From: Pectobacterium parmentieri | GTDB taxonomy: Bacteria > Pseudomonadota > Gammaproteobacteria > Enterobacterales > Enterobacteriaceae | Assembly: GCF_001742145.1 (NCBI RefSeq) | Contig: NZ_CP015749.1 | Span: 1,302,001-1,366,000 of the forward strand | DNA: 64,000 nucleotides | Direction of reading: 5' to 3' | In this document: in pieces, positions 16,382-50,727 of the stretch | Layout: each line of letters opens with the position of its first letter | Numbering within the stretch: position 1 is the first letter of the stretch | Notes under the pieces: model-generated | Databases searched by the model: none | What the model was told of the DNA's origin: nothing | The model's input: the letters and a program-made list of their open reading frames with translations, nothing else | Translations under genes and position numbers: made by a program

Positions 16382-16717
16382 AATAAAGCGACCTCTGCTG
16401 GAGGAGTAGAAAACCAGTACCGAGAAGGATAACCCTTTTGGCATTTTTCCCGATCCTACATGATAACCCTATACCTATTAGTGAGTACCACCGAATATCC
16501 ATGTCTTGAAAGGGGATATGACAGTAAGAAAAAATAAAGAGATAACAGTTTGAATTATCGTTGCTTATTTTTCTATTTTTATTACTCATTAAGGAGTGTG
16601 GTTATTTTAACTCGTTTTTTTTACCTGACAGCGTGTTGATTTGCATCAACTTTACCTGCTGTGTAATCCCTAATGTTGCGCCTTAATTCTACCGCGTTTT
16701 TATTTATCGAGGTTTTT
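16382..16717. promoter_or_regulatory. narX-narK divergent control region
   Basis: 336 bases between the divergent genes. It contains the narK FNR box (16636-16649), a -10-like TAATGT at 16671-16676 and one NarL-type heptamer TACCTAT at 16472-16478. No coding sequence is present. Confidence 0.6.
16636..16649 (+). promoter_or_regulatory. FNR box of narK
   Basis: TTGATTTGCATCAA is a perfect FNR site (TTGAT, 4 bases, ATCAA). The -10-like TAATGT at 16671-16676 puts the start about 41 bases downstream of the box centre, the class II spacing used for anaerobic activation. Confidence 0.85.
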
Positions 16718-18106
16718 ATGACGCAGCCTTCATCACCCGAAAAAGTATCGCAAAGCACGCTGATAAGGGAATGGAATCCTGAAGATACAAAATTATGGCA
16801 ATCTGGTGGGCAACGGATAGCACAGCGTAATCTTTGGATCTCCGTACCGTGCCTGCTGTTGTCGTTTTGTGTCTGGATGATTTTCAGCACCGTGGCCGTT
16901 AACCTAAATAAGGTCGGATTTAGTTTTACCACAGACCAGCTCTTTTTGCTCACCGCGCTGCCTTCCGTTTCCGGCGCACTGTTACGCGTTCCTTACTCCT
17001 TCGTTATCCCAATCGTTGGCGGCCGCCGCTGGACGACGCTAAGTACCATTATTCTGGTTATTCCATGTATCTGGCTTGGATTTGTCGTACAGAATCCACA
17101 AACGCCTTACAGCGTTTTCGTTACGATTTCTCTGATGTGTGGGTTTGCTGGCGCTAATTTCGCCTCCAGCATGGCTAACATCAGTTTCTTCTTCCCCAAA
17201 TCACGTCAGGGGAGTGCATTAGGTATTAACGGCGGATTGGGTAACCTCGGCGTGAGCGTGATGCAGTTGCTGGTGCCGGTGGTGATTTTTCTGCCGATTC
17301 TGGGTTTTTCTGGTAATGGCGTTGTTCAGTCAGACGGTAACCAGATTTGGCTGCACCATGCCGCGTGGATGTGGGTACCGTTTCTGGTTATTGCTGCAAC
17401 GGCTGCCTGGTTTGGCATGAACGATCTTTCGACGGCTAATGCATCGATACGTAAGCAATTGCCGGTTTTGAAGCAAATGCACCTATGGGTGCTCAGCTTT
17501 CTGTACTTGTCCACCTTTGGTTCATTTATCGGTTTTTCGGCAGGCTTCGGTATGCTGTCCAGAACGCAGTTTCCTGACATTGTTATTCTGTACTACGCCT
17601 TCTTCGGGCCGCTGCTGGGGGCGCTGGCGCGTCCGGTTGGTGGGATGCTGTCTGACCGCTTTGGCGGTGTGAAAGTTACGCTGATTAACTTCATCCTGAT
17701 GGCGATTTTCTCGGTGCTGTTGTTTCTGTCTTTGCCGAGTGCGAACTCTGCGGGTTCATTCGGGATGTTCTTTGGCATCTTCATGATGCTGTTCCTGACG
17801 GCCGGTCTGGGTAGTGGGTCTACGTTCCAGATGATCGCTGTGATTTTCCGTAAATTAACGGGAGATCGGGTTAAAGCACAGGGTGGAAGTGATGCCGCTG
17901 CACAGAGTTCTGCTGCCACGGATACCGCCGCGGCGCTGGGCTTTATCTCAGCCATTGGCGCGATCGGCGGCTTCTTCATCCCGCAAGCCTTCGGGATGTC
18001 GCTTGAGTTAACCGGTTCACCCACCGGTGCAATGAAGGTATTTGTGGTGTGCTACGTGGTGTGCATCCTGGTGACCTGGCTGTTTTATGCCAGAAAGAAA
18101 AGCTGA
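16718..18106 (+). CDS. narK: NarK nitrate/nitrite transporter
   Basis: Major-facilitator nitrate/nitrite antiporter of the inner membrane that supplies nitrate to the cytoplasmic active site of NarG and removes nitrite. The 462-residue protein has 12 predicted membrane segments and both nitrate-signature glycine-rich motifs: GFAGANFASSMANISFFFP and GLGSGSTFQMIAVIF. The substrate-binding arginines are expected in LLRVPYSF and RPVGGMLSDRFGG. The start at 16718 is chosen from the CGAGG ribosome site and the usual NarK N-terminus. Anaerobic control by FNR is supported by the box at 16636. Confidence 0.95.
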   Translation: MTQPSSPEKVSQSTLIREWNPEDTKLWQSGGQRIAQRNLWISVPCLLLSFCVWMIFSTVAVNLNKVGFSFTTDQLFLLTALPSVSGALLRVPYSFVIPIVGGRRWTTLSTIILVIPCIWLGFVVQNPQTPYSVFVTISLMCGFAGANFASSMANISFFFPKSRQGSALGINGGLGNLGVSVMQLLVPVVIFLPILGFSGNGVVQSDGNQIWLHHAAWMWVPFLVIAATAAWFGMNDLSTANASIRKQLPVLKQMHLWVLSFLYLSTFGSFIGFSAGFGMLSRTQFPDIVILYYAFFGPLLGALARPVGGMLSDRFGGVKVTLINFILMAIFSVLLFLSLPSANSAGSFGMFFGIFMMLFLTAGLGSGSTFQMIAVIFRKLTGDRVKAQGGSDAAAQSSAATDTAAALGFISAIGAIGGFFIPQAFGMSLELTGSPTGAMKVFVVCYVVCILVTWLFYARKKS

Positions 18107-18218
18107 GCCTTTACCCGGCCCCCAACCGCCTCTTAGTCACATTTTTATGTCGACCAAGAGGTGGTTCCGTGCGCGGTTAATGCTGTCTTTTTCATGCTAC
18201 TGTGTGGCACGCGCCCGG

Positions 18219-18363
18219 CACGGGGCAGCTCAAACGCCGCTCGCCCCGTGACCCCAGGTTTCCGGAAGAAATTATGCCGCTCACGCGGTGCTTTCGTCGA
18301 TATCCGGCTTAACGGACCGCTTGCGACACGTTTACTCGCCCCATAAATGGGGCTCATCCTAAG
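18219..18363 (-). repeat. dispersed structured repeat, copy A
   Basis: Read on the minus strand this matches the element at 50436-50595. A 25-base block (18308-18332) is identical in both. Three hairpins are seen: GCCCCA/TGGGGC (18353-18338, 4-base loop), CCGC/GCGG with GTGA loop (18288-18277) and CACGGGGC/GCCCCGTG (18250-18243 with 18226-18219). Stem differences from copy B are compensating base-pair changes. I do not recognise the family; it could be a small RNA gene or a hairpin-rich miniature mobile element. Confidence 0.7.
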
Positions 18364-18493
18364 CCCGCTCCCTCCTCAGCATAATTTTTTACGCCAGAAA
18401 AATAAGGACAGAGGGAATTTTCTGAGTCCGCATGAAAATGACAGTGTTGCTGCGCACGAAACATTCTTAGAGTCTGCATAGCATGTGACTAAG

Positions 18494-18521
18494 ACGCCAC
18501 CCTTTTCGGAGCGGCGTTTTT
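18494..18521 (+). terminator. probable intrinsic terminator upstream of narG
   Basis: ACGCC and GGCGT arms flank a 14-base interior that can pair partly, and the stem is followed by TTTTTT. It would end transcription from narK or from the repeat before the narG promoter. Confidence 0.6.
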
Positions 18522-49468: not shown

Positions 49469-50287
49469 ATGAGACAGCAGGGTGAAGTGGGTATCCGTCT
49501 GTGGAACACGTTCTTTAATTTCTATGGGGCGGCGATGCTGTTGTTTTTAATCGTTCCCGTGCTGGTAATTGTTCCGCTCTCTTTTAATGCGGGCTCGTTT
49601 CTGAGCTATCCGCTGACGGGATTTTCCCTGCGCTGGTATCGCGAATTTTTCAACTCTAGCGAGTGGCTGGGGGCGCTGGGCAACAGCCTGCTGATTGCGC
49701 CGCTGGCGACATTACTGGCAACGGTGCTTGGCGTGTTGGCCTCGGTCGGGCTGGTACGCGGTGAATTTCGCGGTAAATCGCTGGTGATGGCGGTACTGAT
49801 TTCGCCGATGATTGCACCGGTGGTGATTGTCGCGGTCGGGATGTTTTTCTTCTTTGCCAAACTGTCGCTGTTGAACAGCTATTTAGGGCTGGTATTGGCA
49901 CATGCGATGCTGGGTGTGCCGTTCGTAGTGATTACGGTCACAGCGGTCTTGAAGAATTACGATCATAACCTGACGCGTGCGGCTGCGAGTCTGGGCGCGT
50001 CGCCGCTGCTGGCCTTCCGCAAGGTGACGTTTCCGCTGATTGCGCCGGGGGTATTCTCCGGCGCGCTTTTTGCCTTCGCGACCTCGTTTGACGAGGTGAT
50101 CGTCACGCTATTTCTTGCCAGCCCACGCCAGCGCACGTTGCCGCTGCAGATGTTTGCCGGCATTCGCGAGAACCTCGACCCAACGATTGCCGCCGCCGCG
50201 ACCATGATGGTCGGTGCCGCGCTTGTGCTACTGATCGTAATGGAGATCCTGCGCCGCCGTTCGGAGCGGCTACGGAGTGGGGGGTAA
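49469..50287 (+). CDS. PotC-like ABC permease
   Basis: Second membrane subunit of the importer, 272 residues, six membrane segments. The EAA loop RAAASLGASPLLAFRKVTFPLIAPG, which contacts the ATPase, is intact. It lies 37 bases after the PotB-like gene with its own ribosome site (GGGGAG). No ATPase gene follows; the candidate ATPase is at 41008-42102. Confidence 0.88.
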   Translation: MRQQGEVGIRLWNTFFNFYGAAMLLFLIVPVLVIVPLSFNAGSFLSYPLTGFSLRWYREFFNSSEWLGALGNSLLIAPLATLLATVLGVLASVGLVRGEFRGKSLVMAVLISPMIAPVVIVAVGMFFFFAKLSLLNSYLGLVLAHAMLGVPFVVITVTAVLKNYDHNLTRAAASLGASPLLAFRKVTFPLIAPGVFSGALFAFATSFDEVIVTLFLASPRQRTLPLQMFAGIRENLDPTIAAAATMMVGAALVLLIVMEILRRRSERLRSGG

Positions 50288-50435
50288 TCAGATGCTCTTG
50301 GTGTATGGATTATTTTCGTGCGTATTTGATCCTTTATTTTCCCTTCGCGTACTGTTTTTTGCACGTAATTAATGTAGAGCGCAATAGGAGTTGGTTGTTA
50401 TCCGGCGTAAGAAATTATGCTGAGGAGATATCAGG

Positions 50436-50595
50436 CTTAGGATGAGCCGCATGGATGCGGCGAAAGCTTGCGCCACGTAGGGAACGTGTCGCAAGCGGTC
50501 CGTTAAGTCTGATACCGACGAAGGCATCGCGCAGCGACATAATTAGCGCCGAAAAAGCCAGTGGTCAAGGCGCTGCGGCGATTGAGCGCGCCTTG
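50436..50595 (+). repeat. dispersed structured repeat, copy B
   Basis: Forward copy of the element at 18219-18363. Hairpins: GCCGCA/TGCGGC (50446-50451, 50456-50461), GCTTGCG-CACGT/ACGTG-CGCAAGC (50466-50496), TCGC/GCGA (50527-50537) and CAAGGCGC/GCGCCTTG (50566-50573, 50588-50595). The loop GCGGCG..TGAGC of the last hairpin and a 25-base block at 50483-50507 are shared with copy A, while stem bases differ in pairs. Not recognised as a named family. Confidence 0.7.
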
Positions 50596-50727
50596 TCGGG
50601 CGTGTGATGAAGTCACAGAGAAATAACGCTACTAATACGCACGAAACTTTCACACTAGGATGTATGTAGTCGTGAAAAGACTAAATTTTGCTGAAATTTT
50701 CTTCAGCTTTTTTTAAAAGCCAATTTA

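What the first reader, a model, noticed from the sequence alone, without database searches (positions are those of the whole stretch)
18219..18363. Two-copy dispersed element with compensating base-pair changes in three hairpins
The copy here (minus strand) and that at 50436-50595 share a 25-base identical block and loop sequences, but the stems differ in pairs. Hairpin 1: GCCCCA/TGGGGC versus GCCGCA/TGCGGC (one C-G to G-C swap). Hairpin 2: CCGC/GCGG versus TCGC/GCGA (C-G to T-A). Hairpin 3: CACGGGGC/GCCCCGTG versus CAAGGCGC/GCGCCTTG (C-G to A-T and G-C to C-G). Four compensating pairs with conserved single-stranded parts indicate selection on a folded RNA, or a DNA hairpin recognised by an enzyme. 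I know no named family for it.
Basis: seen in the sequence. Interest (0 to 1): 0.8.

Follow-up and report, generated by a model that had tools for sequence, protein, structure and literature searches.

The report
Dispersed structured repeat with GGA hairpins
The two sequences are a damaged and an intact copy of a folded element that is scattered between the genes of Pectobacterium and many related bacteria, and its strictly conserved loops look like docking sites for the global regulator CsrA/RsmA.

Summary
The sequences are two members of a dispersed family, not a two-copy element: 20 of 20 scored candidates in this genome match, and 25 of 25 genus genomes have copies. Copy 2 (50387-50676 +) is complete. 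In 69 matches, 60 of the 67 loci from 18 other genera, 31 of 33 pairs show two-sided changes and 96.8% of cells pair. Wobbles favour the element strand (G.U 74, A.C 13 events). Loops of hairpins A and B hold GGA in 69 and 68 of 69; the hairpin C loop never does. The core overlaps Rfam TwoAYGGAY, already predicted to bind CsrA (PMC4333381), but the window copies miss its cut-off. Tn5-like inverted ends and one copy with a 9-bp duplication suggest past transposition. Best reading: a mobile or formerly mobile 3'-UTR element carrying a CsrA/RsmA-binding RNA fold. CsrA binding, transcription and transposase are inferred, not shown.

The parts
18126..18411 (-). Copy 1: deletion derivative of the long form; keeps both P0 arms, P1, hairpins C and D and the 3' end (GACTAAGAGGCGG); lacks hairpin A and the 5' arm of B
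   Evidence: HMM hits 18132-18356 and 18348-18411; outer 3' end by eye; alignment
18338..18353 (-).
   Evidence: position; alignment
18308..18332 (-). 25-base block identical in both copies; 3' arm of hairpin B and of P1
18277..18288 (-).
18219..18250 (-).
18425..18496 (+). Remnant of the 3' end of another copy in the opposite orientation, directly beside copy 1
   Evidence: HMM hit 18425-18484 +; outer end by eye
50387..50676 (+). Copy 2: complete short form
   Evidence: HMM hits 50387-50480 and 50483-50656; model R1 166.4 bits; 3' end by eye
50412..50419 (+). P0, 5' arm (pairs with 50538-50545)
50538..50545 (+). P0, 3' arm
50429..50443 (+). P1, 5' arm (pairs with 50498-50514); helix swapped as a whole between subtypes
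50498..50514 (+). P1, 3' arm
50446..50461 (+). Hairpin A, GCCGC-ATGGAT-GCGGC: ANGGAN-type GGA loop, predicted CsrA/RsmA site 1
   Evidence: position; GGA in 69 of 69 matches
50466..50496 (+). Hairpin B with AGGGA loop, predicted CsrA/RsmA site 2; long forms carry the inner module in place of this loop
   Evidence: position; GGA in 68 of 69 matches; junctions near model positions 114 and 189
50527..50537 (+). Copy 2 hairpin C (TCGC/GCGA)
50566..50595 (+). Copy 2 hairpin D (CAAGGCGC/GCGCCTTG)
50690..50714 (+). Terminator-like hairpin and T run just after copy 2, placing the copy in the likely 3' UTR of the permease-like gene ending at 50287
   Evidence: 1 found, 0.6 expected in shuffles; gene

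Best explanation
The finding is two members of a high-copy intergenic element family. Each intact member, once transcribed (most simply by read-through from the gene upstream), folds into a conserved RNA: an outer stem P0 holds a closed domain P1 that presents two hairpins, A and B, with GGA loops, then hairpin C, followed by 3' hairpins D and E. The paired GGA hairpins are predicted to be held by one CsrA/RsmA dimer, so that each copy tethers that global regulator to a 3' UTR or titrates it. The copies were probably spread by a transposase that recognised the Tn5/IS50-like inverted ends (CTGTCTCTTA..CACA) and inserted near transcription terminators. Shown: copy number, fold, covariation, GGA conservation, rarity between divergent genes. 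Supported by few cases: ends, target duplication, terminator target. Inferred: transcription, CsrA binding, titration, transposase.
For: Copies in 25 of 25 genus genomes, in 27 of 149 genomes of the family, one per genus, and 20 of 20 scored candidates in this genome. Structure: 18 of the top 20 covarying column pairs; 31 of 33 pairs with two-sided change, 96.8% of cells paired against 42.2% or less when slid. Strand: G.U 74 against A.C 13 cluster events (p 1.6e-11). GGA in loop A 69/69, loop B 68/69, loop C 0/69; CA(N)GGAYG in 64/69. Published CsrA/RsmE site: GGA in a hairpin loop, ANGGAN hexaloop, RUACARGGAUGU (PMC7652899, passages). TwoAYGGAY was proposed as CsrA-binding for two such hairpins (PMC4333381, passages), and Rfam and R1 match the same places. 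Context: divergent gene pairs only 2 of 139. Ends: L119 has CTGTCTCTTA at both ends and an 8-of-9 duplication inside a dyad.
Against: No transcript or binding data. Stems A and B are longer than in SELEX ligands (four or fewer contiguous pairs; PMC7652899), loop B is not an ANGGAN hexaloop, and the strict core ACARGGATGT is in only 6 of 69 matches. Only two GGA hairpins per copy, against about 20 in CsrB (recalled). No orientation bias in tandem gene pairs (47 sense, 38 antisense), and both window loci carry copies in either orientation. G.U is about ten times rarer than in RNase P RNA. The U.G pair that is nearly fixed in the Pectobacterium-centred set (144 sequences against TA 7, AG 2, TC 1) is U.G in only 41 of 68 across genera, C-G in 19. 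One of the five measures (further pair types) does not exceed shuffles. Only 1 of 19 copies with both ends recognisable has a clear target duplication, and the mean match (3.0) does not exceed the best of 1000 shuffles (3.16). The end pattern at up to 2 mismatches is absent from this genome. Tn5-type transposase domain in 0 of 25 genus genomes. None of the 60 loci fetched from other genera shows CTGTCTCTTA with one mismatch or less in the flanks searched.
Confidence: 0.5

Rival explanations
1. A DNA-level mobile repeat: hairpins are recognised as DNA (by a transposase or as terminator-seeking palindromes), and paired changes come from hairpin-templated repair or exchange between copies, with no RNA function.
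For: Inverted ends and a 9-bp duplication in L119; site occupied in either orientation at both window loci; mosaic subtypes with whole helices swapped; G.U only 1.7% in covarying pairs against 15.9% in RNase P; no sense bias.
Against: Wobble asymmetry between strands (74 against 13 events) and invariant GGA loops with varying stems are not expected of two-strand palindrome correction. A transposase that uses one DNA strand only would still give the asymmetry.
Confidence: 0.25
2. A structured 3'-UTR RNA with another task (RNA stability, RNase or Hfq binding, termination), not CsrA binding; the GGA loops serve tertiary contacts or another protein.
For: Unpaired positions other than GGA are also at least 95% conserved, e.g. 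alignment A2 columns 54, 82, 111, 119 and 124. Copies lie downstream of at least one gene in 137 of 139 cases. The unrelated YPAL repeats might influence upstream transcripts (PMC2229807, section 11).
Against: GGA in both of two adjacent hairpins and in none of the hairpin C loops is the known signature of paired CsrA sites (PMC4333381, PMC7652899; passages).
Confidence: 0.2
3. A branch of the known YPAL/RU-2 repeats of Yersinia and Erwinia carotovora.
For: Same kind of intergenic, dyad-seeking, hairpin-rich repeat, reported in E. carotovora (PMC2229807 table); RU-2 too has two GGA-loop hairpins in an outer stem.
Against: No HMM hit and no significant BLAST match to the 156 aligned copies; R1 gives at most 11.3 bits on the 8 YPAL-type loci tested; YPAL exists separately in this genome, 5 of 5 scored candidates, and 6 of the 8 YPAL-type loci reach the cut-off of Rfam Ysr224.
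Confidence: 0.05

Closest known systems
TwoAYGGAY RNA motif (Rfam RF01731, clan CL00106)
   Same: Outer pairing that encloses two hairpins with GGA terminal loops; R1 and RF01731 match the same place in L181, L395 and L396 above the Rfam cut-off and in six further loci below it.
   Different: Window copies are below the cut-off, as are 18 of the 20 R1-positive loci tested at the R1 place; here the core sits in a larger fold (P0, C, D, E, and in the Pectobacterium group a terminal hairpin with inverted ends) and occurs as a dispersed multicopy repeat, which the one passage read on RF01731 in PMC2864571 does not mention.
YPAL / RU-2 / Rfam Ysr224 (RF02770)
   Same: Enterobacterial intergenic repeat near dyads, rich in hairpins, with two GGA loops.
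   Different: 168 bp, different sequence, reported target duplications of 3 to 26 bp; present separately in the same genome.
AaHKsRNA22 (Rfam RF02902)
   Same: The inner module in loop B of long forms is similar to sequences of other genera that match RF02902 (L184 40.4 bits, cut-off 39.8).
   Different: The module of the one Pectobacterium long copy tested (L045) shows no such match; the module is only an insert in the element, and it also occurs on its own in other genera.
CsrB/RsmB-type CsrA-sequestering RNAs
   Same: GGA in hairpin loops.
   Different: One copy holds two sites; dispersed copies instead of one dedicated gene; binding untested.
Bacterial MITEs (ERIC, NEMIS, RUP and others)
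   Same: Short non-coding, dispersed, inverted ends, likely target duplication.
   Different: Ends resemble Tn5/IS50 (recalled) and no Tn5-type transposase was found in the genus.

Membership tests
TwoAYGGAY (RF01731) | Score at or above Rfam gathering (43 bits) | tested here: not met
   Window copies: no RF01731 match listed. Of 20 R1-positive loci from other genera, 8 have a match overlapping the R1 place, 2 of these at or above 43; L397 has one elsewhere in the locus, 45.2. L181 43.7, L178 34.7.
TwoAYGGAY (RF01731) | Two adjacent GGA-loop hairpins inside an enclosing stem | tested here: met
   A 69/69 and B 68/69 with GGA; structure counted.
YPAL/RU-2 | Sequence homology to the 168-nt RU-2 | tested here: not met
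   No nhmmer hit, best BLAST to the 156 copies E 0.94; R1 at most 11.3 bits on 8 YPAL-type loci.
Miniature inverted-repeat transposable element | Terminal inverted repeats | tested here: met
   Left-like end in 62, right-like in 78, both in 39 of 157 copies at up to 4 edits; L119 has CTGTCTCTTA at both ends. End pattern 58 places against 23 for the reversed control in 25 genus genomes, none in G000. Not seen in 60 loci of other genera at one mismatch or less.
Miniature inverted-repeat transposable element | Target-site duplication | tested here: inconclusive
   L119 8 of 9 bases; the other 18 of 19 show at most 5; mean 3.0 against shuffled 2.2, maximum 3.16.
Miniature inverted-repeat transposable element | Partner transposase with the same ends | tested here: not met
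   Tn5-type domain PF02281 in 0 of 25 genus genomes; other transposase families not searched, apart from Y1_Tnp in this genome.
REP elements with TnpA-REP | Linked Y1 transposase (RAYT) | tested here: not met
   One Y1_Tnp in this genome, no element HMM hit in its fetched locus L288.
CsrA/RsmA-binding RNA | GGA in hairpin loop, usually paired | tested here: met
CsrA/RsmA-binding RNA | Binds CsrA/RsmA | not testable with these tools
   Needs binding or cross-linking data.

The most novel reading that the evidence does not exclude
TwoAYGGAY, an orphan structured-RNA motif, is the core of a family of transposon-like elements that spread ready-made CsrA/RsmA-dimer sites into the 3' UTRs of enterobacterial genes. 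Tens of copies per genome form a distributed CsrA sponge, or wire the genes they land behind into the Csr network, so that mobile elements shape a global post-transcriptional regulon.
Probability: 0.3. Interest if true: 0.82.

Novelty: new variant of a known kind. Interest (0 to 1): 0.6.

Why it matters
It links three things that the passages read here treat apart: dispersed enterobacterial repeats, the orphan TwoAYGGAY motif and CsrA-binding hairpins. If CsrA binds, every genome with tens of copies carries a distributed decoy pool, or tens of extra CsrA-controlled 3' UTRs, that differ between strains; in Pectobacterium RsmA is a global regulator (recalled). The strong covariation gives a ready secondary-structure model, and binding can be tested with one gel shift.

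Tried and rejected

Led nowhere: clean empty sites. At window locus 1 one of 23 genomes lacks the element, but its filler is unrelated. For L119, in 9 genomes of the genus of G145 the downstream flank aligns in 9, but the upstream flank in only 2, and the exact insertion point does not align. A first reading that the G.U shortage alone speaks for DNA was weakened when ambiguous helices were set aside: outside P1, P1x and P00, and without helix P1in that holds the U.G pair, 112 G.U against 13 A.C cells remain. The mean target-duplication match over 19 copies gave no clear signal. Rows set aside: L017 (same element as L002), L016 and L018 in the first alignment; 274 chained hits to 217 near-complete ones to 187 distinct copies, then copies under 270 bases and near-duplicates (187 to 180 to 156); 44 of 183 copies from the gene-context count because a predicted ORF overlapped the element; P1, P1x and P00 from the wobble count; 10 of 40 RNase P genes, for which no locus was fetched. 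One search lists 19 copies, those with both ends recognisable and distinct flanks.

Full report
What is there. Copy 1 (18126-18411, minus) lies between a NarK-family transporter gene (16673-18106 +) and narG (from 18701 +), both above NCBIfam cut-offs; copy 2 (50387-50676, plus) lies between a gene whose best match is a PotC-type ABC permease (ends 50287 +) and a short-chain-dehydrogenase-like gene (from 50753 +), both below the cut-offs shown. BLAST with copy 1 finds 18 places in this genome. In a sample of 59 genomes all 25 of the genus have copies and none of the 34 others at this BLAST threshold. A pattern scan names the genus and its neighbours: of 120 stretches (80 rows printed, scan stopped at its limit) the printed rows are Pectobacterium, Brenneria, Samsonia, Candidatus Symbiopectobacterium and one genome labelled Serratia marcescens, plus two rows (Nannocystis, a Clostridia MAG) in which the element HMM finds nothing.

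Anatomy. Alignment of copies shows two forms, about 300 and 380 bases as extracted: 119 and 50 of 187 distinct copies fall in those length bins. They differ by a module of about 75 bp that replaces the loop of hairpin B, with a junction near model positions 114 and 189 in many short copies. Copy 2 is a short form. The fold of intact copies is: P0 (AAATTATG/CATAATTT), P1, hairpins A and B, hairpin C, then D and E; minimum-energy folds of single copies agree mostly on A, B and P1 and vary elsewhere. P1 is swapped as a whole between subtypes, e.g. AGGCTTAGGA/TCCGTTAAGCCT, GAGCACCGAG/CTCGAATAGTGCTC, AACGTTTTCAGGA/TCCGTCAGGAAAACGTT (sequences printed; the last read as reverse complement).

Covariation. 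In a sequence-only alignment of 156 copies, 9 of the top 10, 18 of the top 20, 22 of the top 30 and 27 of the top 50 column pairs by corrected mutual information fall in the 61-pair structure, out of 46,971 pairs; the helices were seeded from that same ranking, so this is not a blind test. Parsimony on a tree from the unpaired columns needs at least 396 changes between Watson-Crick types over 38 variable pairs; exchange between copies will inflate this. In 34 short forms, 12 of 33 pairs have changes on both sides, 98.2% of cells pair, and slid structures reach 48.4% at most; four of five measures exceed nearly all shuffles, the number of further pair types does not (23 against 23.7). A covariance model R1 from these finds the core in 27 of 149 genomes of the family, one per genus, with 20 of 20 scored candidates matching in five of them, this genome included, so copy numbers are lower bounds. 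Sixty loci from 18 other genera plus seven of Pectobacterium and Brenneria gave 69 matches. On that alignment, which is fitted to the model, 31 of 33 pairs have two-sided changes, 96.8% of cells pair, and slid structures reach 42.2% at most.

Strand and molecule. Wobbles tell which strand folds. Without the ambiguous helices and without helix P1in that contains a frequent U.G pair, there are 74 G.U against 13 A.C events over 54 sequence clusters (p 1.6e-11). In the cross-genus set, without the U.G pair, 45 against 13 (p 3e-5). The U.G pair is present in 144 sequences of the 156-copy set (TA 7, AG 2, TC 1), but across genera in only 41 of 68, with C-G in 19. This favours folding of the element strand, as RNA or single-stranded DNA. 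Against RNA: in covarying pairs G.U makes up 1.7% of cells, against 15.9% in 30 RNase P RNAs of the same family (30 of the 40 found), treated alike; A.C is 1.0% and 1.1%. The sets differ in divergence (mean identity 68% and 87%), and many copies descend from few masters, so I do not read the shortage as decisive; it stays unexplained.

GGA loops. Across the 69 matches, loop A holds GGA in 69, loop B in 68, loop C in 0; 64 hold CA(N)GGAYG, 6 the strict ACARGGATGT. Hairpin A is typically C-ANGGAN-G. CsrA SELEX gave RUACARGGAUGU with GGA in a hairpin loop, and RsmE structures show an ANGGAN hexaloop (PMC7652899, passages). TwoAYGGAY (RF01731) has the same double hairpin and was proposed as a CsrA binder on that ground (PMC4333381, passages). 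R1 and RF01731 meet at the same places: L181 (46.7 and 43.7 bits), L396 and L395 (52.0 and 49.2 in Rfam), and six further loci below the Rfam cut-off; 12 of the 20 loci given to one search show no RF01731 match at the R1 place. The window copies do not reach any Rfam cut-off. So the core works like TwoAYGGAY and is probably homologous to it, but the window copies fail the formal membership test. Copy 1 has lost hairpin A and half of hairpin B and would not bind by this route.

Context and mobility. Of 183 copies examined, 44 were set aside because an ORF overlapped them; of the other 139, 52 lie between convergent genes, 47 downstream of a gene in sense, 38 in antisense and only 2 between divergent genes. 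The ORF finder was a simple one of my own, and the copies include orthologues of the same sites (both window loci above all), so these counts are not independent. There is no sense bias (47 against 38, p 0.39). Both window loci are occupied across the genus in either orientation: locus 2, 15 forward and 7 reverse of 22 read (one more lacked anchors); locus 1, 15 forward, 7 reverse and one empty of 23 read (two more lacked anchors). Copy 1 sits beside the inverted 3' end of another copy. The ends read CTGTCTCTTA..CACA, close to the Tn5/IS50 outer end (recalled); at up to 4 edits both are seen in 39 of 157 copies. The end pattern at up to 2 mismatches occurs 58 times in 25 genus genomes against 23 for the reversed control, but not in this genome; of 30 loci fetched for it 27 have an element hit. 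L119 (Brenneria) has both ends and an 8-of-9 duplication (GGCGACGCC/GGCGACGCG) in the loop of a dyad that looks like a terminator. The other 18 of 19 copies show no such duplication, no Tn5-type transposase domain is in the genus, and copies from other genera lack this end in the flanks searched. The inverted ends thus look like a feature of one branch, and past transposition is likely but not proven.

Known relatives. YPAL/RU-2, reported from Yersinia and Erwinia carotovora (PMC2229807 passages and section 11, PMC2759123 passages), is a different family: no HMM hit and no significant BLAST match to the aligned copies, at most 11.3 bits with R1, separate copies in this genome, and 6 of 8 such loci at or above the cut-off of Rfam Ysr224. 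The inner module resembles AaHKsRNA22 in other genera (L184 40.4 bits, cut-off 39.8; others below) and occurs there on its own, in L187 and L192 as repeated units beside tRNA-like sequence. For novelty I searched the held library for Pectobacterium with intergenic repeats, for MITE, Serratia and ERIC terms, for TwoAYGGAY, for the Aggregatibacter sRNA name, for CsrA with intergenic repeats, for Pectobacterium small RNAs, for YPAL and for CsrA with MITE. From these listings and the passages read I found no text that describes this repeat family or ties TwoAYGGAY to a dispersed repeat. Most subscription papers are not held.

Verdict. Real, multicopy, strongly structured; ordinary in kind (a dispersed intergenic repeat), new in detail, and with a testable and unusual proposal: mobile CsrA/RsmA-binding 3'-UTR elements.

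Noticed in passing
window 18425-18496 (+): Remnant of the 3' end of a second copy, inverted, directly beside copy 1 and next to a terminator-like stem (by eye; not flagged by the scan); the narK-narG gap has received elements more than once.
   Followed up: partly
L198-L219 and L228-L251: At both window loci the genus carries copies of different subtypes in either orientation at the same intergenic place (15/7 and 15/7), as if the site were re-used or inverted repeatedly.
   Followed up: partly
L187, L192 (other genera): The inner module occurs alone and repeated next to tRNA sequence and pieces of it, resembling AaHKsRNA22 below the Rfam cut-off.
   Followed up: partly
L323, L334 and G000: A separate YPAL/RU-2 (Rfam Ysr224) repeat family lives in the same genome.
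   Followed up: partly
covarying pairs of the 156-copy alignment: G.U pairs are about ten times rarer than in RNase P RNA although A.C is equally rare; a few master copies, copy exchange or a DNA-level process could explain it.
   Followed up: partly
L361-L386 (other genera): Upstream of several distant copies stand TTGACCTTG-like motifs (L369-L371, L378-L386) or a shared TTTCCTYACATAC-like stretch (L361-L368), perhaps the ends of other branches of the family.
   Followed up: no
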